Below, piece after piece: positions 2,461-10,512 of a DNA stretch of 64,000 bases (positions within the stretch are counted from its first letter, which is position 1; every line of letters begins with the position of its first letter). Source of the DNA: a marine gamma proteobacterium HTCC2080 (GTDB lineage Bacteria; Pseudomonadota; Gammaproteobacteria; Pseudomonadales; Halieaceae). Under the pieces are notes generated by a model. It made no database searches, had not been told where the DNA came from, and saw nothing but the letters and a program-made list of their open reading frames with translations. The translations under genes and the position numbers were made by a program. Location: positions 62,001 to 126,000 of the forward strand of contig AAVV01000008.1 in the NCBI GenBank assembly GCA_000169115.1, in the 5' to 3' direction.

Positions 2461-4488
2461 TTAGCTGCGTGCACGCCCTCGTCGGCGTCGCGTGTTGCCT
2501 GCAGCACTTTGCTGTGTTCGTACAACCGGCGGTGGAATTTCACCAAAAAGATGTGTGAAAGGGTCAGACTTGTGGGGGAATGCCATGGCGTCTACAAAGT
2601 AGTCTTGAAATTTATCTTCGACGGCAGTTTCAATGCGCTCGGCCCAGCGCACAATTTTCTCAATGTGACCCCGACTGTCGCGGTCGAGTAGGGCAATGCG
2701 TGCTCCCATTCCGGCGGCATTACCTGCCGCGGAAACATTTTCCAATGGGCAGTCGGGTATCAATCCCAGCACCATGGCGTGGGATAGGCTAATGTGGCTG
2801 CCAAAAGCACCTGCGAGGCGAATGCGATCGATTTGTTGAGTGCCCATATGGTCTTGGAGTAGCTTAACCCCTGCATATAGGGCGGCTTTGGCCAGTTGAA
2901 TTTGTCGAATATCGTTTTGAGTGACCGAGATATCGGACTGACCCTCGGCGGTAGCACTATGAAGCTTGTAGGACCAGGTTCTGTCTGAGGCGAAAATTCG
3001 TGAATTTTGGCTTTCGAGGTCACCATTCACCACACCATCGGTGGAGACTATGCCGGCTAGGAACATCTCGGCGACGGCTTCAATAATGCCAGAGCCACAG
3101 ATGCCGGTGACGCCAATTGTCCCTATAGCCTGCTCAAAGCCCGGCTCATTGGACCAAAGATCAGAACCTATGACTTTAAAGCGTGGCTCCAGAGTTTCTC
3201 GGTCAATGCGAACGCGCTCGATGGCACCGAAAGTCGCTCGCTGCCCCGAGCTTATTTGAGCCCCTTCAAAGGCAGGGCCGGTGGGAGTGGAGCAGACCAG
3301 CATGCGATCTTTGTTACCCAAGACAATTTCCGCGTTCGTACCGACGTCGATTACCAGGGTCATTTCGGCGTCTTGCTCGGGATGCTCGGCTAAAATAACA
3401 CCTGCCGAATCTGCGCCTACATGTCCTGCGATGCAGGGCAAGACGTAAACTCTCCCGCCAGGATGAATGTTGATGTCCAGATCTTTGGCTCTCAGCTCAA
3501 GGGCTTCGGTTGTGGTGAGGGCAAAGGGAGCACCCCCTAAATTTACAGGATCAATGCCCAGAAAAATGTGGTGCATGATGGGGTTGGCGACCAAAGTGAT
3601 CTCGAGAATATCTTCCAGGTCTCCAGCGACACCCTCGCTAAGCTCAACAAACAGATCGTTCAGAGCGCGACGAATAACGGCGGTCATTTCCCCAGCGCCT
3701 TCCGGGTGCATCATAATGTACGACACCCGGCTCATAAGGTCTTCACCAAACCGAATTTGGGGATTCATGACACTCGCGGTCCCCAAGACTTCGCCATTGC
3801 CTAAATCACACAGATGCGCCGCTACGGTGGTTGAGCCCACATCAATGGCTACACCCCTAGGAGATTCAAATAGCCCGGGCCAAATGGCGATAACATCTTG
3901 AGCGTTATACACCGCGACAGTGACCGCCTGTTTACCCTCGATCAACGCTTTCTGCAGACGTGGTAGGACATTGGCTTCAATGCGTAAATTCTCGAGCTCC
4001 CAATCGCGCTTGAGTGCATCGAGAAGAAGTTGGGCTTCTCCGCGTATATCTTCAAGGCTGGCTGATTCAACTTCGACGTAGTGGAGTCGGGTCGCGGTAT
4101 TAAGCCGAATATCTCGGTGTTCAGTCTCTTTACGAATAATTTGTCGATGGACCTGGCTTTCGGGAGGAACGTCAATGACAACATCGTTAAGCAGGGTGGC
4201 ATGACAACTCAAGCGATGACGTTCAGGGAGAGTTCCTTTGCGTTCTTCAAACCGGGCCTCGGTAACGCTGAACGGCGACAGATTTTCGGTATCCGAGGTG
4301 AGTCCGTGTTTTGGAAAGTGCCCGGACATACACTCGACTCTGCAACGGCCACAAAGACCTCGACCACCACAAACCGAGTCTATGTCAACGCCTAGGCTTC
4401 TCGCGGCATCGAGTACCGGTGTGCCTTTGGGAAAGCTTCCCCGGCGCCCAGATGGCATGAAAAGAATTTTTACTGACTCATCAGACAC
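2461..4488 (-). CDS. ASKHA-domain ATP-dependent corrinoid reactivation protein, RACo-like
   Basis: This protein is predicted to re-reduce the inactive Co(II) form of a corrinoid protein to Co(I), using a reduced electron donor and ATP. The N-terminus is a 2Fe-2S ferredoxin domain with Cys40, Cys46, Cys49 (CGGRGLCGRC) and a fourth candidate Cys95 (RLSCHA). The remainder is the DUF4445/ASKHA ATPase, with phosphate-loop-like segments AIDVGSTTVAAHL and VIDVGTNAEIVLG and the glycine-rich GICGSGIIEAVAE. The N-terminal 2Fe-2S arrangement matches RACo of acetogens more than RamA, whose clusters are C-terminal. At 675 residues it is of usual length. It is the last gene of the operon, with its ATG two bases past the stop of the methyltransferase gene. 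The C-terminus ends in an Arg-rich tail (TRRRRGRARS). Confidence 0.9.
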   Translation of the reverse strand: MSDESVKILFMPSGRRGSFPKGTPVLDAARSLGVDIDSVCGGRGLCGRCRVECMSGHFPKHGLTSDTENLSPFSVTEARFEERKGTLPERHRLSCHATLLNDVVIDVPPESQVHRQIIRKETEHRDIRLNTATRLHYVEVESASLEDIRGEAQLLLDALKRDWELENLRIEANVLPRLQKALIEGKQAVTVAVYNAQDVIAIWPGLFESPRGVAIDVGSTTVAAHLCDLGNGEVLGTASVMNPQIRFGEDLMSRVSYIMMHPEGAGEMTAVIRRALNDLFVELSEGVAGDLEDILEITLVANPIMHHIFLGIDPVNLGGAPFALTTTEALELRAKDLDINIHPGGRVYVLPCIAGHVGADSAGVILAEHPEQDAEMTLVIDVGTNAEIVLGNKDRMLVCSTPTGPAFEGAQISSGQRATFGAIERVRIDRETLEPRFKVIGSDLWSNEPGFEQAIGTIGVTGICGSGIIEAVAEMFLAGIVSTDGVVNGDLESQNSRIFASDRTWSYKLHSATAEGQSDISVTQNDIRQIQLAKAALYAGVKLLQDHMGTQQIDRIRLAGAFGSHISLSHAMVLGLIPDCPLENVSAAGNAAGMGARIALLDRDSRGHIEKIVRWAERIETAVEDKFQDYFVDAMAFPHKSDPFTHLFGEIPPPVVRTQQSAAGNTRRRRGRARS

Positions 4489-4490
4489 AG

Positions 4491-5396
4491 CTAGGCACTC
4501 CTGCGCCGTCCTGTACGACCGCCACGACCACCGCGGCCGGTTCCCTCAGCAGCCGGCTCTCTGTAGGCTTTGATCCAGTTGGCACAGTTGGGGTCGTGCC
4601 CCATCATGACGTCGCCACCACGAACCGCCTGCATGACTTCAGCATGCAGGGGGCTGGTAATTGCCGAGGTCATCCCCGCACCCATTGCCATCGTTAAAAA
4701 TGCGGCATTGATGCCATTGCGATTGGGCAGGCCAAAACTAACGTTGGAGGCGCCGCAGGTCGTATTGACCTGAAGTTCTTCTCTGAGACGTCGTACCAGG
4801 TGCATCACCTGCACCCCAGCGGTATTAATTGCGCCGATGGGCATAACGAGAGGGTCGACGACAATATTGCTGTGATGAATGCCGTAGTCGGCAGCGCGCT
4901 CAACAATTTTCTTGGCAACAGCGAAGCGTTCATTAGGGTCTTCAGAAATCCCCGTTTCGTCGTTAGAAATAGCAACTACGGCCGCATTATAGCGGGCTAC
5001 CAGCGGCAAAACACGTTCCAATACTTCGTCTTCGCCAGTGACTGAATTGACCAATGCTTTGCCCTGATAAACGGCTAATCCTGCTTCGAGTGCCTCGACA
5101 ATGGAGGAATCAATGCTTAAGGGCACGTCGGTGATGGCCTGCACGCGTCGAATCGCCTCGGCAAGAATCGCCGGTTCGTCGGCAAGCGGGATCCCTGCGT
5201 TGACGTCGAGCATTTGAGCTCCCGCGGCAACTTGCGCGAGTGCATCAGACTCCACTCGGCTGTAATCACCGACTTTCATTTCCTCGGCAAGAATTTTTCG
5301 GCCGGTGGGGTTGATGCGCTCGCCAATAATGATGAAGGGCTGATCAAAGCCGATTCGAACTTCTTTGGTTGCCGAACTGAGGATTGTCGTGGTCAT
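4491..5396 (-). CDS. Pterin-binding methyltetrahydrofolate:corrinoid methyltransferase, AcsE/MtgA-like
   Basis: This is a TIM-barrel pterin-binding enzyme that exchanges a methyl group between a corrinoid protein and tetrahydrofolate. Family motifs include the N-terminal IIGERINPTGRK, the DVNAGIP strand, SIDSS, the NSVTGE segment and NVSFGLPNR, all placed as in AcsE/MetH pterin domains. In this operon it would accept the methyl from the methylated corrinoid protein to give methyl-THF. The length of 301 residues includes a tail not expected in the family: the last 16 residues are Arg/Gly-rich (TGRGGRGGRTGRRRSA). The start overlaps the MetF-like gene as ATGA, indicating coupled translation. The direction of reaction is inferred from context. 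Confidence 0.9.
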   Translation of the reverse strand: MTTTILSSATKEVRIGFDQPFIIIGERINPTGRKILAEEMKVGDYSRVESDALAQVAAGAQMLDVNAGIPLADEPAILAEAIRRVQAITDVPLSIDSSIVEALEAGLAVYQGKALVNSVTGEDEVLERVLPLVARYNAAVVAISNDETGISEDPNERFAVAKKIVERAADYGIHHSNIVVDPLVMPIGAINTAGVQVMHLVRRLREELQVNTTCGASNVSFGLPNRNGINAAFLTMAMGAGMTSAITSPLHAEVMQAVRGGDVMMGHDPNCANWIKAYREPAAEGTGRGGRGGRTGRRRSA

Positions 5397-6397
5397 GTAC
5401 TGCTCCTATTCGAGTCCGCTGGACTCCAGGGCACTCGGGTGCCCAATACCTTGGATTTTGTGACGATTTCACCAATTCGGTGTTCTTGACGATAGGCCAT
5501 CAGATGTATGCCGCTGACCCCCTCGATTTCTTGAATTTGCTGCATAAGGTCGATACACAGATCGACCCCTTCCTGTTTTTGATCTTTAGCACCGGCTAGG
5601 CGTTTAATCACGGAATCAGGAATGTGTACTCCAGCGACATTTTTACGGATCCAGTCGGCTGACTTTGCTGAAGCCATAGGGCCCACGCCAGGGAGAATAA
5701 ACACTTTTTCGTGAAGGCCCATGTCACGGGTTTTGGCCATGAATAACTTGAGGCGCTCAATATCGAAGCAGTACTGGGTCTGCACGAACTGGGCTCCCGC
5801 CGCGATTTTTTTAGCGAGCCGTTGGGGTCGAAAATCTAGAGGCGGCGCAAAGGGGTTCGAAGCGCCGCCCATAAAAAGGCGGGGCGGTGACGACAGCGAT
5901 CGGCCACTGAGAAAAGCGCTGTTGTCGCGCATGTGGCGCACCATGGACAGTGCCGAAATACTATCCATGTCAAAAACGGGTTTGGCTTCGGGGTGGTCAC
6001 CCGACTGCACGCCATCGCCGCTTAGGCAAAGAATATTGGCAACACCCATGGCAGCGGCTCCGAGCACATCACCCTGCATAGATATGCGGTTTCTGTCCCG
6101 ACATGACATTTGCAAAATCATCGAGTAACCCATGCGGGTGAGCAGGGCACAAATGCCCATGCTCGACATATGACAATTGGCGCCAGAACCGTCGGTTGCA
6201 TTGATGGCATCAACATAGCCATTGAAATCTTCGGCTCGCGCGTAGACCTCATTGGGGTCAGCTGAGTCAGGGGGGGCTATCTCAGCTGTGACGGCAAACT
6301 GACCGGCTCTCAGTACACGCTCAAAGCGACCAGGAGAAAAATGACCGGGCAAAATAGGCAGGTTTTCGCCGGCGGCTGGCTCGTCAGCAAAGTTCAT
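5393..6397 (-). CDS. Methylenetetrahydrofolate reductase, MetF-like catalytic subunit
   Basis: This flavoprotein interconverts methyl-THF and methylene-THF. Recognisable family segments are TAEIAPPDS near the N-terminus, the LCLSGDG strand, the AGAQFVQTQYCFD strand and VFILPGVGPM. A longer reading starts at 6436, but I chose the ATG at 6397. It overlaps the stop of the preceding gene as ATGA and is preceded by GGGAG at suitable distance, giving 334 residues. In this operon the physiological direction is probably oxidation of methyl-THF, the reverse of the biosynthetic MetF. The adjacent gene carries the separate MTHFR C-terminal domain, the MetV/MetF arrangement known from acetogens. The protein ends in VPWSPADSNRSST without an Arg-rich tail. 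Confidence 0.9.
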   Translation of the reverse strand: MNFADEPAAGENLPILPGHFSPGRFERVLRAGQFAVTAEIAPPDSADPNEVYARAEDFNGYVDAINATDGSGANCHMSSMGICALLTRMGYSMILQMSCRDRNRISMQGDVLGAAAMGVANILCLSGDGVQSGDHPEAKPVFDMDSISALSMVRHMRDNSAFLSGRSLSSPPRLFMGGASNPFAPPLDFRPQRLAKKIAAGAQFVQTQYCFDIERLKLFMAKTRDMGLHEKVFILPGVGPMASAKSADWIRKNVAGVHIPDSVIKRLAGAKDQKQEGVDLCIDLMQQIQEIEGVSGIHLMAYRQEHRIGEIVTKSKVLGTRVPWSPADSNRSST

Positions 6398-6852
6398 GCA
6401 GATTTCTCCCGCCGCGACTTTAACGCGCCCAGCCAACTGCTACGGCCTTTCAGGCGGGTATCGACGGGCAGTTGTATTACCTGCAATCCGCTATCACCCT
6501 GACCCATTTGCTGGCTGCCTTCCCAGGCTTTTACCCACACACAGGTCATCTCGGGTTTGATTTCGCAGCCGCCATCTTGCCTGACACCGCCACAGGGCCC
6601 GTTGCGCAGAGTCTTGGGACAGTTCATAGGGCAGGCCATGCCCGTCGCCCCTAGGGTGCACTGACCGCAGGACTGTGAGTCGAATAAAAATCCTTTGATG
6701 AGCCCTTCAAGGCGAGCAAAGGTTTTGTCTAGGCGCTGATAGCCAATTTTGTGCAAGAGAGGGTCCAGCAATTCTAAGGTCCACTCAAAGGCTTCGTATA
6801 GCCTATGCAGCCCTTTGGCGTGTCGCGTAGACCAATCTCGCGCCGCTTTCAC
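6394..6852 (-). CDS. MTHFR C-terminal domain protein, MetV-like partner
   Basis: This 152-residue protein consists of the cysteine-rich domain found fused to, or next to, MetF (Pfam MTHFR_C). Cys62, Cys65, Cys74, Cys78, Cys87, Cys96 and Cys104 are visible, including CGQC and the signature ACPMNCPK...NGPCGG. In acetogens the homologous MetV subunit binds metal and forms a complex with MetF; by analogy it should partner the adjacent MetF-like protein. The start is a GTG that overlaps the upstream stop as GTGA, with GAGG about eight bases ahead. I cannot say from sequence whether it binds zinc or an iron-sulphur cluster here. Confidence 0.85.
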   Translation of the reverse strand: MKAARDWSTRHAKGLHRLYEAFEWTLELLDPLLHKIGYQRLDKTFARLEGLIKGFLFDSQSCGQCTLGATGMACPMNCPKTLRNGPCGGVRQDGGCEIKPEMTCVWVKAWEGSQQMGQGDSGLQVIQLPVDTRLKGRSSWLGALKSRREKSA

Positions 6853-7157
6853 GTGAGCGCCTCATCGAAGCCCTTCTGAGCCACGAGCCGTGCGATATCG
6901 TCATCAGAATACTGCGCTTCAATTTGTTCACCGAACTCTTGGGCAATGTCTTTCACCGAACCCTCTGCCTCGATGGACGTGGTCACCCGTCGCCACTCTT
7001 CGAGGTAGGCATCACTGCCTCCTTTCCCAGCTTTCATTGCTGCACGGTCGATAGCTGCCTGAAAGCGATGGCTGAGTAGGTGCTTGCCACGATCGCGCCC
7101 GCGTTTGATTAAAACTTGGGCTGGAATATCACGCCAATAAACATCAATGCGCTGCAT
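6849..7157 (-). CDS. Small 'virulence factor' domain protein
   Basis: This 102-residue protein resembles the Pfam Virulence_fact family, whose biochemical role is unknown despite the name. Conserved-looking segments are DVYWRDIPAQVLI near the N-terminus and a C-terminal helical part. I prefer the ATG at 7157 over the longer start at 7175 because GGAG sits about eight bases upstream of it. The gene overlaps its neighbours on both sides, so it is made together with the corrinoid system. Nothing supports a role in virulence; an accessory or assembly role for the methyl-transfer enzymes is inference from position only. Confidence 0.7.
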   Translation of the reverse strand: MQRIDVYWRDIPAQVLIKRGRDRGKHLLSHRFQAAIDRAAMKAGKGGSDAYLEEWRRVTTSIEAEGSVKDIAQEFGEQIEAQYSDDDIARLVAQKGFDEALT

Positions 7158-7785
7158 GATGAGCTCCGCTAGCATGTTGCAAATTAATAACCTGTCTTTC
7201 GAGGTGTTGCCCTAGCTCGCCCATGCCTGTTGTAAGGGTTTCAAAACGAAGCCCCAGGTAGTCGGCGGCTCGGCGCGCGGCAAGCTGCAATTGTTCATCG
7301 TCTTGCTGTGCAAGATAAACAACCCGGCGGTAGTGACCGAAAAACTCCTGCAGCAGCTGTGGATGACGATCGAGCTTCAGGCCTCGGACGACCAGTCGAT
7401 CGAAATGCCTTACCAGGAAATCGGTGAGATAAAAGGTGCCAGGCTCGGCGTCAGCTAACGCATTAAAACGAGCTTCAGTGGCATAAAAGGCATAGCAGTG
7501 AGCACCGGGAAGACGTTCTAGGTTCCACCGCGCCAAGACTTTATCAATGCCGCCGCCGGTGCCACAGTCGCCATAGGCGACAAAAATCTGGTCAAACTGA
7601 TTATGGTTTTCAGCAATCACAGCATCGAGTTTTTCCGGGATTTTCTCCGGGCGGTTGTGCAGTTCAGCGTCGAGGCACTTTACAGACACACTTTGCCAAT
7701 CATTGTTGCGCCTGAGCCATTCGATCTCCCTTGCGAGTGCCCCACAGGCGATCACAAGCAGTGACGATGACTCAGCAATACTCAT
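7144..7785 (-). CDS. DUF1638 domain-containing protein
   Basis: This is a 213-residue soluble protein matching the DUF1638 pattern: a hydrophobic first strand (LLVIACGALAREI), an FVAYGDCGTGGGID glycine-rich loop and a region of alternating helices and strands ending near FETLTTGMGEL. The two conserved cysteines (IACGAL and GDCGTGG) look like ligand or metal positions. DUF1638 genes commonly sit beside MttB and corrinoid genes, as here. Function is unknown; a role in corrinoid or folate handling is only inferred. Its ATG shares one base with the stop of the corrinoid protein gene (TGATG), so translation is probably coupled. Confidence 0.8.
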   Translation of the reverse strand: MSIAESSSLLVIACGALAREIEWLRRNNDWQSVSVKCLDAELHNRPEKIPEKLDAVIAENHNQFDQIFVAYGDCGTGGGIDKVLARWNLERLPGAHCYAFYATEARFNALADAEPGTFYLTDFLVRHFDRLVVRGLKLDRHPQLLQEFFGHYRRVVYLAQQDDEQLQLAARRAADYLGLRFETLTTGMGELGQHLERQVINLQHASGAHHAAH

Positions 7786-8483
7786 CAGGGAACCTGAGCA
7801 AGGCGTCGGGCCTGTACAAAACTGACGGCAGTGGTCGCGGCCTCGGCAGCATCGCGACAGTAGGCGTCGGCGCCAACTGCTTCGCCAAACTCTTCATTTA
7901 GCGGGGCACCGCCAACAAGAACAATGTATTTATCTCTCAGCCCTTGATCTTTTAAAGCGTCGATAACCACTTTCATGTAGGGCATTGTCGTTGTCAGAAG
8001 TGCTGACATGCCAAGAATGTCAGGCTTATGCTCCTCAAGGGCAGCCAGGTAATCCTCGACAGAATTATTAATGCCAATATCGTGCACATCGAAACCTGCG
8101 CCCTCAAGCATCATGGCGACCAAATTCTTACCAATGTCATGAATGTCACCTTTGACGGTGCCTATCACCATAGTACCTACCGGCTTAGCGCCGGTTTCAG
8201 CGAGCAGAGGGCGCAATATAGACATTCCGCCTTTCATCGCGTTGGCCGCCAGCAAGACCTCCGGAACAAACAAAATACCGTCGCGGAAATCGATGCCAAC
8301 AATAGTCATGCCGTCAACCAGGGCTTTGCTTAAAACTTGTTCCGCAGACCAACCTCGGTCGAGCAGAATGTGGGTCGCTGCCTCGATTTCTTCGGTCAGC
8401 CCATCATAGAGGTCATCGTGTATCTGAGGAATGAGATCTTCATCAGAGAGATCGGCGAGGATAATGTCTTCTTCATCGGACAT
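7785..8483 (-). CDS. Corrinoid (B12-binding) methyl carrier protein, MttC-like
   Basis: This is the methyl carrier of the operon: cob(I)alamin on this protein accepts the methyl group from the MttB-like enzyme and gives it to THF through the AcsE-like enzyme. Residues about 20-95 form the helical cap domain. The B12-binding Rossmann domain follows with the base-off signature Asp113-x-His115-x-x-Gly118 (DIHDIGKN), then GMSALLTTTMP and VGGAPLNEEF. The start has a very strong ribosome binding site (AAGGAGG at 8494-8500), suggesting high expression. The first 34 residues contain 14 Asp/Glu and no Lys or Arg. Length is 232 residues, normal for the family. Confidence 0.92.
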   Translation of the reverse strand: MSDEEDIILADLSDEDLIPQIHDDLYDGLTEEIEAATHILLDRGWSAEQVLSKALVDGMTIVGIDFRDGILFVPEVLLAANAMKGGMSILRPLLAETGAKPVGTMVIGTVKGDIHDIGKNLVAMMLEGAGFDVHDIGINNSVEDYLAALEEHKPDILGMSALLTTTMPYMKVVIDALKDQGLRDKYIVLVGGAPLNEEFGEAVGADAYCRDAAEAATTAVSFVQARRLAQVP

Positions 8484-8509
8484 ATTGGGTGGTCCTCCTT
8501 GGGCAGTGG

Positions 8510-10048
8510 TCAGTAGTCACGATCTTCGAAAGAGGCTTTCTGTCGACGCATGTAATCCAACAGGGCTTCATCGATAGCGGGGTCTAGCGCGGGTGGCTCA
8601 TAGTCGGCTAGCATTTTTTTCCAAATGACATTGGCGCGCTGAGCGGTGTCGAGACTTCCCTCGGCAGACCACTGCTCGTAACTGTTGCTGTCGGCTACGG
8701 TCGAGCGGTAAAAGGCCGTTTCGAAGTGCTTGAGGGTGTGCTCAGAGCCCAAAAAGTGTTTTCCGGGGCCGCCTTCTTCAAAGGCACTCATTGCCTGCGC
8801 ATCTTCAGAGAGGTCTACACCGTTGAGCAGTACACCAATCATACTGGCCTGGTCGCAATCCATAATGAATTTTTCATAGCCCATCGCGAGACCGCCTTCG
8901 AGCCAGCCCGCGGTGTGAAGCATAAAGTTCACGCCGGCCAGGGCAGCGGTCTGAAGGGTATTAGCCGATTCATAAGCGGCTTGCGCATCGGGCAGTTTAG
9001 AAGCGCATAAACCGCCCCCACTTCTAAAGGGTACTCCAAGGCGTCGCGCGAGTGCCGCTGCTGCATAAATAACCATGCTTGGCTCAGGAGTGCCAAAAGT
9101 CGGTGCACCTGTTGCCATGGAGACTGCGGCGGCAAAAGTTCCAAAAACCACAGGTGCCCCGGGCCTGATTAGTTGGGTCAGAGTGATACCTGCTAAGGCC
9201 TCGGCCAAAATTTGCGTGACTGTTCCTGTCACGGTTACAGGTGACATGGCGCCTGCCAAAATAAAGGGCGAGATAACGGTGGCTTGATTATTGCGAGCGT
9301 AGACTTTCAATGATCCCAGCATGGTGCCGTCAAAGACCATAGGAGAATTGACGTTGATCAGGCTGGTTAACACGCAATTTTGATCAACAAACTCGTCGCC
9401 AAAGACGAGTTTTGCCATGTCTACAGAGTCTTGAGCTCGGCTATCCAGCGTGACTGAGCCCATAAGGGGTTTATCGCTGTATTTGAAGTGGCTGTAGACC
9501 ATGTCGTAGTGACGCTTGTTAACCGGCAGATCAACGGGTTCACAGACCGTACCACCTGAGTGGTGCAAGCCGGGCGCCATGTACGCTAACTTGACGAAAT
9601 TACGGAAGTCTTCAATGGTGGCGTAGCGACGCCCTTTGTCCAAATCGTGAACAAAAGGAGGGCCGTAAGCAGGGACTAGGACGGTGTTTTTCCCACCAAT
9701 GGTGACGCTGCGGGCAGGATTACGCGCGTGTTGGGTGTAGCTCGCTGGGGCGCTAGCTTGAATGATCGACCGGCAAAGCCCCGGTGCAAAGCGCACACGA
9801 GTACCATCGACGTCTGCCCCGGCATTTTTGAACAGTTCCAAAACTTCAGGGTCATCCAGAAAATCGATGCCAATTTCAGCTAGCAGCCGATCAGCATTGT
9901 GCTCAATAAGTTCAAGGGCCTCGGTAGAGAGCATTTCAAAATAGGGGATCTTTCGCTCAATAAAGGGGGCCGTTGCCGCGACCGTATTGCGCGCCTCGCG
10001 TCGTCCAGCGCGCCCGCCACCTTTCCGTCTGACTCCTCGTTCACTCAT
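8510..10048 (-). CDS. MttB-family (COG5598) corrinoid methyltransferase, non-pyrrolysine type
   Basis: This enzyme is related to trimethylamine methyltransferase and should demethylate a methylated amine, transferring the methyl to the adjacent corrinoid protein. The whole reading frame is open with no internal TAG, so it belongs to the non-pyrrolysine group, which includes enzymes for glycine betaine, proline betaine and carnitine; the substrate here is unknown. Family segments include the early RKIPYFEML, VPAYGPPFV, SGGTVCEPVDLPV and LGSEHTLKHFE near the C-terminus. I chose ATG 10048 over GTG 10060 because AAGGGGGTGAT lies just upstream; this gives 512 residues. The N-terminus is Arg/Gly-rich (ERGVRRKGGGRAGRREARN). 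It is the first gene of the operon. Confidence 0.9.
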   Translation of the reverse strand: MSERGVRRKGGGRAGRREARNTVAATAPFIERKIPYFEMLSTEALELIEHNADRLLAEIGIDFLDDPEVLELFKNAGADVDGTRVRFAPGLCRSIIQASAPASYTQHARNPARSVTIGGKNTVLVPAYGPPFVHDLDKGRRYATIEDFRNFVKLAYMAPGLHHSGGTVCEPVDLPVNKRHYDMVYSHFKYSDKPLMGSVTLDSRAQDSVDMAKLVFGDEFVDQNCVLTSLINVNSPMVFDGTMLGSLKVYARNNQATVISPFILAGAMSPVTVTGTVTQILAEALAGITLTQLIRPGAPVVFGTFAAAVSMATGAPTFGTPEPSMVIYAAAALARRLGVPFRSGGGLCASKLPDAQAAYESANTLQTAALAGVNFMLHTAGWLEGGLAMGYEKFIMDCDQASMIGVLLNGVDLSEDAQAMSAFEEGGPGKHFLGSEHTLKHFETAFYRSTVADSNSYEQWSAEGSLDTAQRANVIWKKMLADYEPPALDPAIDEALLDYMRRQKASFEDRDY

Positions 10049-10512
10049 TTCGACAATCACCCCCTTCAGACCTTCGTTGTGCCGTTTCGTCCGGCTTTAA
10101 GTGCGGCTCACCCATTGGCAACGCGCGTGGGCCTTTCCTCAACTAAAGCCCCTGTTGTGTTAACAATAGGCGCTGCTGGCATGCCTTGCACTGTACTTTA
10201 AAAACGAACGATTAACGCCGCTAATGTCCCCCCTATGGCCTTTTGACACTTGATCTAGACCGACATAGACGGTACCAAAAACGACCTGCTTGGTAGAAAA
10301 AATATGGCCTTTTTCTAGTTCCAAAAACGGCGGATTGGTCGACTATTATTGCGTTCAGTAAAATGTGGAATAACCAGCGATATTTTTATCACTTAAACAA
10401 CAGTGCAAGTCTACATCTATGAGCGTTTCAGCCCACCTGGTGTCACCAAATTGACCTTTTGCACCGGCCAAATTTGCAGCATCGTGCCAGTGCTTTGGCT
10501 TATTGGCTTAGC
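10049..10512. promoter_or_regulatory. Control region of the corrinoid operon, with repeated motifs
   Basis: About 460 bases without a gene lie ahead of the corrinoid operon. TATGGCCTTTT occurs at 10234-10244 and again at 10303-10313, and CCAAAAACG occurs at 10275-10283 and 10321-10329, both in the same orientation. Such paired motifs suggest regulator binding sites, though no regulator gene is adjacent. I could not place a confident -35/-10 pair on the minus strand. Confidence 0.4.

What the first reader, a model, noticed from the sequence alone, without database searches (positions are those of the whole stretch)
2461..10048. Arg-rich tails on exactly the three enzymes that must dock to an acidic corrinoid protein
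The MttB-like N-terminus (8 basic residues in the first 21), the AcsE-like C-terminus (6 Arg in the last 16) and the RACo-like C-terminus (6 Arg in the last 10) all carry disordered-looking basic tails. The corrinoid protein starts with 14 acidic and no basic residues in 34. These three enzymes are the ones that touch the corrinoid protein; MetF has no such tail. This suggests electrostatic recruitment of the carrier to its partners.
Basis: partly seen in the sequence, partly recalled or inferred. Interest (0 to 1): 0.75.

Follow-up and report, generated by a model that had tools for sequence, protein, structure and literature searches.

The report
Shared arginine tails for one B12-carrier
Several unrelated bacterial enzymes that must take turns with one vitamin-B12 carrier protein carry a short floppy arginine-rich tail, while the carrier begins with an acidic segment, and related systems whose carrier lacks that segment lack the tails too, which looks like a simple electrical docking tag.

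Summary
The operon is a glycine-betaine-type demethylation system: MttB-like (MtgB), corrinoid carrier (MtgC), AcsE-like (MtgD), RACo/RamA-like activase, plus MetF, DUF5981, PF13769 and DUF1638. In 94 homologous loci an Arg-rich C-tail is met on 94 of 94 AcsE-like and 78 of 80 RACo-like proteins and an N-tail on 44 of 45 MttB-family ones, against 2 of 45 MetF. In Chloroflexota and Actinomycetota, related systems beside a plain carrier show 0 of 18 AcsE, 0 of 16 RACo and 0 of 18 MttB tails; systems beside an acidic carrier 11 of 11 each; three genomes hold complete pairs. A prediction noted before the search also held: the homocysteine methyltransferase MtgE, a fourth unrelated client, has the tail and its paralogues lack it; the window genome's own MtgE has it, unlinked. 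So 'exactly three enzymes' is too narrow. GC bias does not explain it. Binding was not measured, half of the acidic segment is predicted helix, and charge covariation does not survive phylogenetic correction. Best reading: an electrostatic client tag for a shared carrier, a new variant of a known kind.

The parts
8510..10060 (-). MttB-family (MtgB-like) methyltransferase, 516 aa
   Evidence: PF06253 744.6 bits; TIGR02369 only 257.9 bits, below its 525 cut-off
9986..10048 (-). Arg-rich N-terminal tail of the MttB-like protein (residues 5-25; G16 and R17 nearly invariant)
   Evidence: alignment A3; pLDDT 36-49; 44 of 45 homologues tailed
7785..8483 (-). stand-alone corrinoid carrier (MtgC-like), 232 aa
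   Evidence: PF02310 and PF02607; model
8382..8483 (-). acidic N-terminal segment of the carrier (34 residues: about 10 of low confidence, then helix 14-26)
4491..5396 (-). AcsE-like (MtgD-like) methyltetrahydrofolate:corrinoid methyltransferase, 301 aa
   Evidence: PF00809; NF005719 368.9 bits over cut-off 259
4494..4541 (-). Arg-rich C-terminal tail of the AcsE-like protein (last 16 residues)
   Evidence: 94 of 94 homologues
2461..4488 (-). RACo/RamA-like corrinoid activase, 675 aa
   Evidence: PF14574, PF17651, PF17650, PF00111
2464..2526 (-). C-terminal tail of the RACo-like protein, Arg-rich in its last 10 residues
   Evidence: 78 of 80 homologues; the PDB chain 3zyy ends 4 residues after the core match
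5393..6436 (-). methylenetetrahydrofolate reductase (MetF), no tail; internal negative control
   Evidence: PF02219; 2 of 45 homologues meet the tail rule
6394..6852 (-). DUF5981, MetF C-terminal-domain protein
   Evidence: PF12225; 19 of 40 meet the tail rule, basic residues mostly in a conserved SSWLR motif
6849..7175 (-). PF13769 ('Virulence_fact') small protein
   Evidence: found in 73 of the 94 loci (70 measured, 3 dropped)
7144..7785 (-). DUF1638 protein, linked in the literature to B12 reactivation
   Evidence: PF07796; PMC5764234, passages

Best explanation
The operon makes a split cobalamin methyltransferase in which one free carrier (MtgC) must visit several enzymes in turn: MttB-family enzymes (methyl donor side), the AcsE-like MtgD (tetrahydrofolate), the RACo-like activase (re-reduction) and, from another locus, the homocysteine methyltransferase MtgE. 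Each of these unrelated enzymes carries an Arg-rich tail (N-terminal on MttB-family members, C-terminal on the others). The tails act as a common client tag that binds the acidic N-terminal end and first cap helix of the carrier, raising the local concentration of the carrier at each partner and keeping partners with the right carrier. Shown: presence, conservation and distribution of tails and of the acidic segment; predicted disorder of the MttB tail. From published genetics in a relative: MtgC serves both betaine demethylation and methionine synthesis. Inferred: that tail and acidic segment touch, that this recruits the carrier, and that weak reversible binding lets it exchange.
For: (1) Conservation: tail rule met by 94 of 94 AcsE-like, 78 of 80 RACo-like and 44 of 45 MttB-family proteins, against 2 of 45 MetF, 3 of 78 DUF1638, 1 of 70 PF13769 and 0 of 80 carrier C-ends in the same loci. 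(2) Absent together: beside plain carriers in Chloroflexota and Actinomycetota 0 of 18 AcsE, 0 of 16 RACo, 0 of 18 MttB; beside acidic carriers 11 of 11 each. G554, G578 and G611 hold both systems with all three partner types measured in each. Best matches in all Actinomycetota genomes searched that yielded a locus: AcsE tails in 18 of 22 acidic-carrier genomes (the other four are the plain-type AcsE) and 0 of 8 plain-only genomes. (3) Prediction noted before the search: the stand-alone MtgE clade has 23 rows, 22 Arg-rich by rule and one Lys/Arg-rich, while its paralogues are not; the window genome's own MtgE is tailed and unlinked. (4) Tails sit on four unrelated families and at different ends; on the MttB tree the trait needs at least three changes. 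(5) Not a GC effect: Arg count against locus GC rho 0.03, p 0.76, n 95; in the 38% and 41% GC loci 5 of 7 tail Arg are AGA/AGG; Arg is 98% of basic residues in AcsE tails. (6) Annotated S. meliloti and Paracoccus aminovorans proteins agree. (7) MtgC is genetically shared between betaine demethylation and methionine synthesis in R. pomeroyi (PMC12478193, passages).
Against: No binding, complex or mutant was examined. Acidic- and plain-carrier systems are largely separate clades, so part of the co-occurrence may be shared descent. Within tailed systems acidic charge against AcsE tail charge correlates (rho 0.55, n 62) but not significantly after independent contrasts (r 0.24, p 0.058); RACo rho 0.25, p 0.054, contrasts 0.09, p 0.47. 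Exceptions: divergent MttB-like paralogues without tail beside tailed ones in L074, L075, L089; MtgE relatives without tail in genomes with the acidic carrier (L148, L160; L145); locus L118 has tailed partners but its only visible carrier is plain (its contig begins just upstream of the AcsE gene); G665 has an acidic carrier but only plain-type partners were found; one plain-system MttB (L399) and two in Chloroflexota (L218, L220) meet the rule if a longer stretch or a far start is taken. In 14 of the 94 loci no carrier gene was seen. DUF5981 meets the mechanical rule in 19 of 40. About half of the acidic segment is a helix.
Confidence: 0.66

Rival explanations
1. Arg-rich tails bind RNA, ribosomes, polyphosphate or acidic membrane lipids and serve to place the enzymes in the cell; the acidic carrier end is unrelated.
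For: Arg/Gly-rich disordered tails are generic binders of polyanions (general knowledge); tail sequences vary apart from Arg.
Against: Does not predict that the acidic carrier end goes with the tails, nor their near absence on MetF and DUF1638 of the same operon.
Confidence: 0.13
2. Tails and acidic segment make the whole set condense or assemble into one multi-enzyme body (metabolon), rather than steering single carrier-partner encounters.
For: Opposite charges on several proteins of one genome; RG-rich tail of the AcsE-like protein.
Against: Not testable here; one acidic segment per carrier (median net charge -9 against +5 for AcsE tails) also suits one-to-one binding.
Confidence: 0.13
3. 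Inherited decoration: tails and acidic end were fixed once in the ancestor of this operon and have no present role in docking.
For: Acidic- and plain-carrier systems are mostly separate clades; charge covariation is not significant after contrasts.
Against: The unlinked, unrelated MtgE and two further MttB clades carry tails; Arg is kept in 38% and 41% GC loci through AGA/AGG codons while other tail residues change.
Confidence: 0.07
4. GC-driven or start-codon artefact.
For: Many loci are GC-rich and N-terminal starts are guessed.
Against: No relation to GC; C-tails do not depend on start choice; annotated strains agree; paired systems in one genome differ.
Confidence: 0.01

Closest known systems
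MtgBCDE split glycine-betaine demethylase / methionine synthase of Ruegeria pomeroyi and Phaeobacter inhibens (PMC12478193, PMC5764234; passages seen)
   Same: Same families: MttB-family MtgB, shared MtgC, pterin enzyme MtgD, homocysteine enzyme MtgE, RamA-like activase, DUF1638.
   Different: The R. pomeroyi text has no occurrence of 'tail' or 'arginine', so the tails are not described there; the window genome also has MetH domains.
Desulfitobacterium hafniense MtgB/MtgC/MtgA
   Same: Same reactions and folds.
   Different: MtgB chains 2qne and 9yce match only from query residues 35 and 38; the AcsE-like chain 4o0q (I recall it as from D. hafniense) ends 9 residues after the core match.
Methanogen MtaB:MtaC and MttB:MttC
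   Same: MtaC has an extra N-terminal domain that fits between MtaB subunits and appears to stabilise the complex (PMC9842639, passages).
   Different: There the determinant is one folded domain for one partner; here a short acidic end and tails on several unrelated partners.
RACo (PDB 3zyy; recalled as from Carboxydothermus)
   Same: Full-length match over the RACo fold.
   Different: Ends 4 residues after the core match, no Arg tail.
Acidic carrier proteins recognised by basic patches (acyl carrier protein; recalled)
   Same: Small acidic carrier, many basic partners.
   Different: Here the basic element is a terminal tail shared by four unrelated families.

Membership tests
MtgBCDE / split cobalamin methyltransferase system | MttB-family enzyme, free B12 carrier, pterin methyltransferase and activase encoded together | tested here: met
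   Pfam hits; gene order
MtgBCDE / split cobalamin methyltransferase system | stand-alone homocysteine methyltransferase (MtgE) in the genome | tested here: met
   G000:C22:187340-188179, L301
MtgBCDE / split cobalamin methyltransferase system | glycine betaine is the substrate | not testable with these tools
   MttB-family members differ in substrate (recalled)
NCBIfam MtgC (NF047996) | score over the curated cut-off | tested here: not met
   199.8 bits against 370
Pyrrolysine TMA methyltransferase MttB (TIGR02369) | score over the curated cut-off; in-frame TAG | tested here: not met
   257.9 against 525; no stop inside the frame
NF005719 (PRK07535) methyltetrahydrofolate:corrinoid methyltransferase | score over the curated cut-off | tested here: met
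   368.9 against 259
AcsV corrinoid activator (NF040756) | score over the curated cut-off | tested here: not met
   380 against 800; the Pfam RACo domains are met
Tailed/acidic client-tag group proposed here | acidic carrier N-terminus together with Arg tails on the partner types | tested here: met
Tailed/acidic client-tag group proposed here | tail binds the acidic segment | not testable with these tools
   no complex prediction or assay available

The most novel reading that the evidence does not exclude
A transferable 'client code': an enzyme given an Arg-rich terminal tail becomes a customer of the acidic MtgC-type B12 carrier, so that unrelated enzymes have gained the same tag independently, the tag insulates co-resident carrier systems from each other, and unknown carrier clients can be found in genomes by their tails.
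Probability: 0.4. Interest if true: 0.85.

Novelty: new variant of a known kind. Interest (0 to 1): 0.72.

Why it matters
How one free corrinoid carrier finds several large enzymes in turn, without the covalent linkage used by MetH, is an open question in B12 enzymology. A conserved, removable, charge-based tag present on the clients and absent from sister systems makes that question testable with tail deletions and swaps, and offers a sequence handle for annotating MtgE and unknown clients.

Tried and rejected
GC drift as cause of Arg: rejected. Charge covariation within tailed systems: raw correlation for AcsE, not significant after contrasts; the pair test had only 3 pairs on starred branches and no power. 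A background count from crude ORFs in the 94 loci (87 of 905 C-ends, 70 of 938 N-ends) is inflated by antisense ORFs; operon-mates were used as controls instead. DUF5981 as a further tailed client: 19 of 40 by rule, but the basic residues lie mostly in a conserved SSWLR motif, so not counted. RNA- or folate-binding roles were only weighed by distribution. Literature searches: 'MttB + DUF1638' 1 paper; five terms on trimethylamine methyltransferase, corrinoid, Rhodobacter, methyltetrahydrofolate, glycine betaine, at least four, 7 papers; 'corrinoid protein + arginine-rich + methyltransferase + electrostatic' 0; MtgC/MtgD and three further terms, at least four, 2 papers; 'arginine-rich + cobalamin-binding + methionine synthase + disordered' 1, on MMACHC, listing only; 'corrinoid protein + methyltransferase + electrostatic + docking + specificity' 0; 'MttB superfamily + N-terminal extension' 0. 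The library holds open-licence papers only. PMC7154762 was seen in passages.
Full report
What is there. On the minus strand, 10060 to 2461, lie eight genes: MttB-family methyltransferase, corrinoid carrier, DUF1638, PF13769, DUF5981, MetF, AcsE-like methyltransferase and RACo-like activase. Published work names these families MtgB, MtgC, MtgD and RamA and shows by mutants in Ruegeria pomeroyi that one MtgC serves both glycine betaine demethylation and methionine synthesis, the latter with a further enzyme, the homocysteine methyltransferase MtgE (PMC12478193, passages seen; split methionine synthase, RamA-like protein and DUF1638 in Phaeobacter inhibens, PMC5764234, passages).

Observation. 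AlphaFold2 gives the first 30 residues of the MttB-like protein pLDDT block means of 36-49. In the carrier only about the first 10 residues are uncertain; residues 14-26 of the acidic stretch are a confident helix. Leu17 and Gln20 are invariant and Leu9 and Leu12 nearly so among 67 carriers, so the segment is more than charge.

Conservation. 80 homologous loci from named records (titles name Gammaproteobacteria, Alphaproteobacteria, Betaproteobacteria, Acidimicrobiia, other Actinomycetota and Chloroflexi) and 14 from unnamed relatives were read. With one rule (a 20-residue stretch beyond the core with at least 4 Arg and 5 basic residues) the AcsE-like tail is met in 94 of 94, the RACo-like in 78 of 80 (the other two, L073 and L095, are basic but short of the rule), MetF 2 of 45, DUF1638 3 of 78, PF13769 1 of 70, carrier C-ends 0 of 80, MttB C-ends 0 of 36, DUF5981 19 of 40 (see for the last). 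The MttB-family N-tail is met in 44 of 45 (the other, L074, has 5 basic residues but 3 Arg) and the acidic carrier end in 69 of 79. In 14 of the 94 loci no carrier was seen, several because the contig ends; in L118 the only carrier seen is plain although the partners are tailed. Some loci are near copies (for example L036 and L067). Arg number does not follow GC (rho 0.03, n 95) and Arg makes 98% of the basic residues in AcsE tails.

Natural controls. Of 201 Chloroflexota genomes 38 have MttB-family members. Their carriers, AcsE-like proteins and MttBs (best loci only) fall in two kinds. G299, G460 and G500 (and G489 and G449 with a somewhat less acidic end) have acidic carriers and tails. Nine (G322, G384, G392, G400, G408, G472, G488, G496, G504) have related operons, all with DUF1638 and six with MetF and DUF5981 in the stretch read, whose carriers begin (M/V)SR(E/Q)EEIR, whose AcsE and RACo proteins lack tails and whose MttBs begin MW.N or VW.N. 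Most further Chloroflexota carriers, AcsE and MttB proteins read are plain and tail-less too. In Actinomycetota 98 of 296 genomes matched the carrier. Counting only stretches that contain a carrier: acidic systems, tails on 11 of 11 AcsE, 11 of 11 RACo, 11 of 11 MttB; plain systems 0 of 18, 0 of 16, 0 of 18 (the AcsE frame of L396 reads on past its tail). G554, G578 and G611 give complete pairs inside one genome; G512, G632, G729 and G489 partial ones, in part with partners on other contigs. Fisher p values are 3e-8 to 8e-8, but the rows are related, so they overstate. Looking at all best-match loci returned for 54 Actinomycetota genomes: AcsE tails in 18 of 22 acidic-carrier genomes, the other four (G665, G527, G729, G632) being the plain-type AcsE, and in 0 of 8 plain-only genomes; MttB tails in 19 of 21 rows of acidic-carrier genomes (not in G527 and G665) and 0 of 10 rows of plain-only genomes. 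G665 thus has an acidic carrier with no tailed partner found; it is a fragmented assembly.

A prediction. If the tail marks clients of this carrier, the unrelated MtgE should have it. The idea was noted before PF02574 was searched in 35 genomes holding these operons. Of 70 rows on a tree built without the tails, the stand-alone MtgE clade has 23: 22 Arg-rich by rule (4 Arg and 5 basic in the last 20), the last Lys/Arg-rich (L170); of 47 rows outside it one meets the rule (L164, a long frame whose end does not look like these tails), one is open and nine are MetH frames labelled 'no' by length. Left out of that tree by a motif filter: L150, tailed, and L145 and L196, not tailed. Two relatives just outside the clade (L148, L160) have none although their genomes have the acidic carrier. 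The window genome's own MtgE (L301) ends SSRRGRRKRA; its paralogue L302 has no tail and its MetH (L300) is cut. Its second MttB-family protein (L127) starts MARRSGGRQARHAQRS. On a MttB tree tails need at least three changes (quick tree, long branches, some labels set by hand).

Named strains. With annotated starts, S. meliloti Ak57 pSymB and Paracoccus aminovorans show the acidic carrier and the tailed MttB, AcsE-like and RACo-like proteins, and in S. meliloti the tailed bmt/MtgE. The PDB chain 4yyc shares the S. meliloti tail sequence, whereas the MtgB chains 2qne and 9yce, the AcsE-like 4o0q, the RACo chain 3zyy and the carrier 1y80 match only the core.

Mechanism. Most likely the tails are a common, weak, exchangeable docking tag for the acidic end and first cap helix of the carrier (confidence 0.66). 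The step from distribution to contact is inference. Against it: covariation fades after phylogenetic correction, tail-less MttB paralogues sit beside tailed ones in three loci, L118 and G665 do not fit cleanly, and the two system types are mostly separate clades. The window genome also has MetH domains at contig ends, so methionine may not depend on this carrier alone.

Novelty. Charge-based carrier recognition is known in other carriers (recalled), and MtaC docks through an extra N-terminal domain (PMC9842639, passages). A terminal Arg tag shared by four unrelated families for one B12 carrier was not found in the searches listed under Tried and rejected.

Noticed in passing
G000:C22:187340-188179 (L301) and G000:C21:110112-111602 (L127): Unlinked MtgE and a second MttB-family protein in the window's genome, both with Arg-rich tails.
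   Followed up: yes
window 6849-7175: The PF13769 'Virulence factor' protein is a frequent member of these demethylation operons (73 of 94 loci); the family name looks misleading.
   Followed up: partly
L074, L075, L089: Divergent MttB-like paralogues starting MRPTLNVL or MRPQLNVL, without tail, near tailed ones; perhaps a partner subunit.
   Followed up: no
G310, G360, G417, G425 (Chloroflexota): MttB-family matches with one in-frame TAG, possibly true pyrrolysine trimethylamine methyltransferases.
   Followed up: no
L396 (G578): AcsE-like frame reads on well past its Arg tail, possibly a lost stop or an assembly error.
   Followed up: no
window 6394-6852; L032-L120: DUF5981 ends in a conserved RL-G-SSWLR motif, whereas plain-carrier systems end SSWINL..GRD or similar.
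   Followed up: partly
window 5393-6436 and 6394-6852: The MetF ORF overlaps DUF5981 by 43 bases if the TTG start is used; the internal Met14 is a likelier start.
   Followed up: no
L118: Acidimicrobiia locus with tailed AcsE, RACo and MttB whose only visible carrier is plain; the contig begins just upstream.
   Followed up: no
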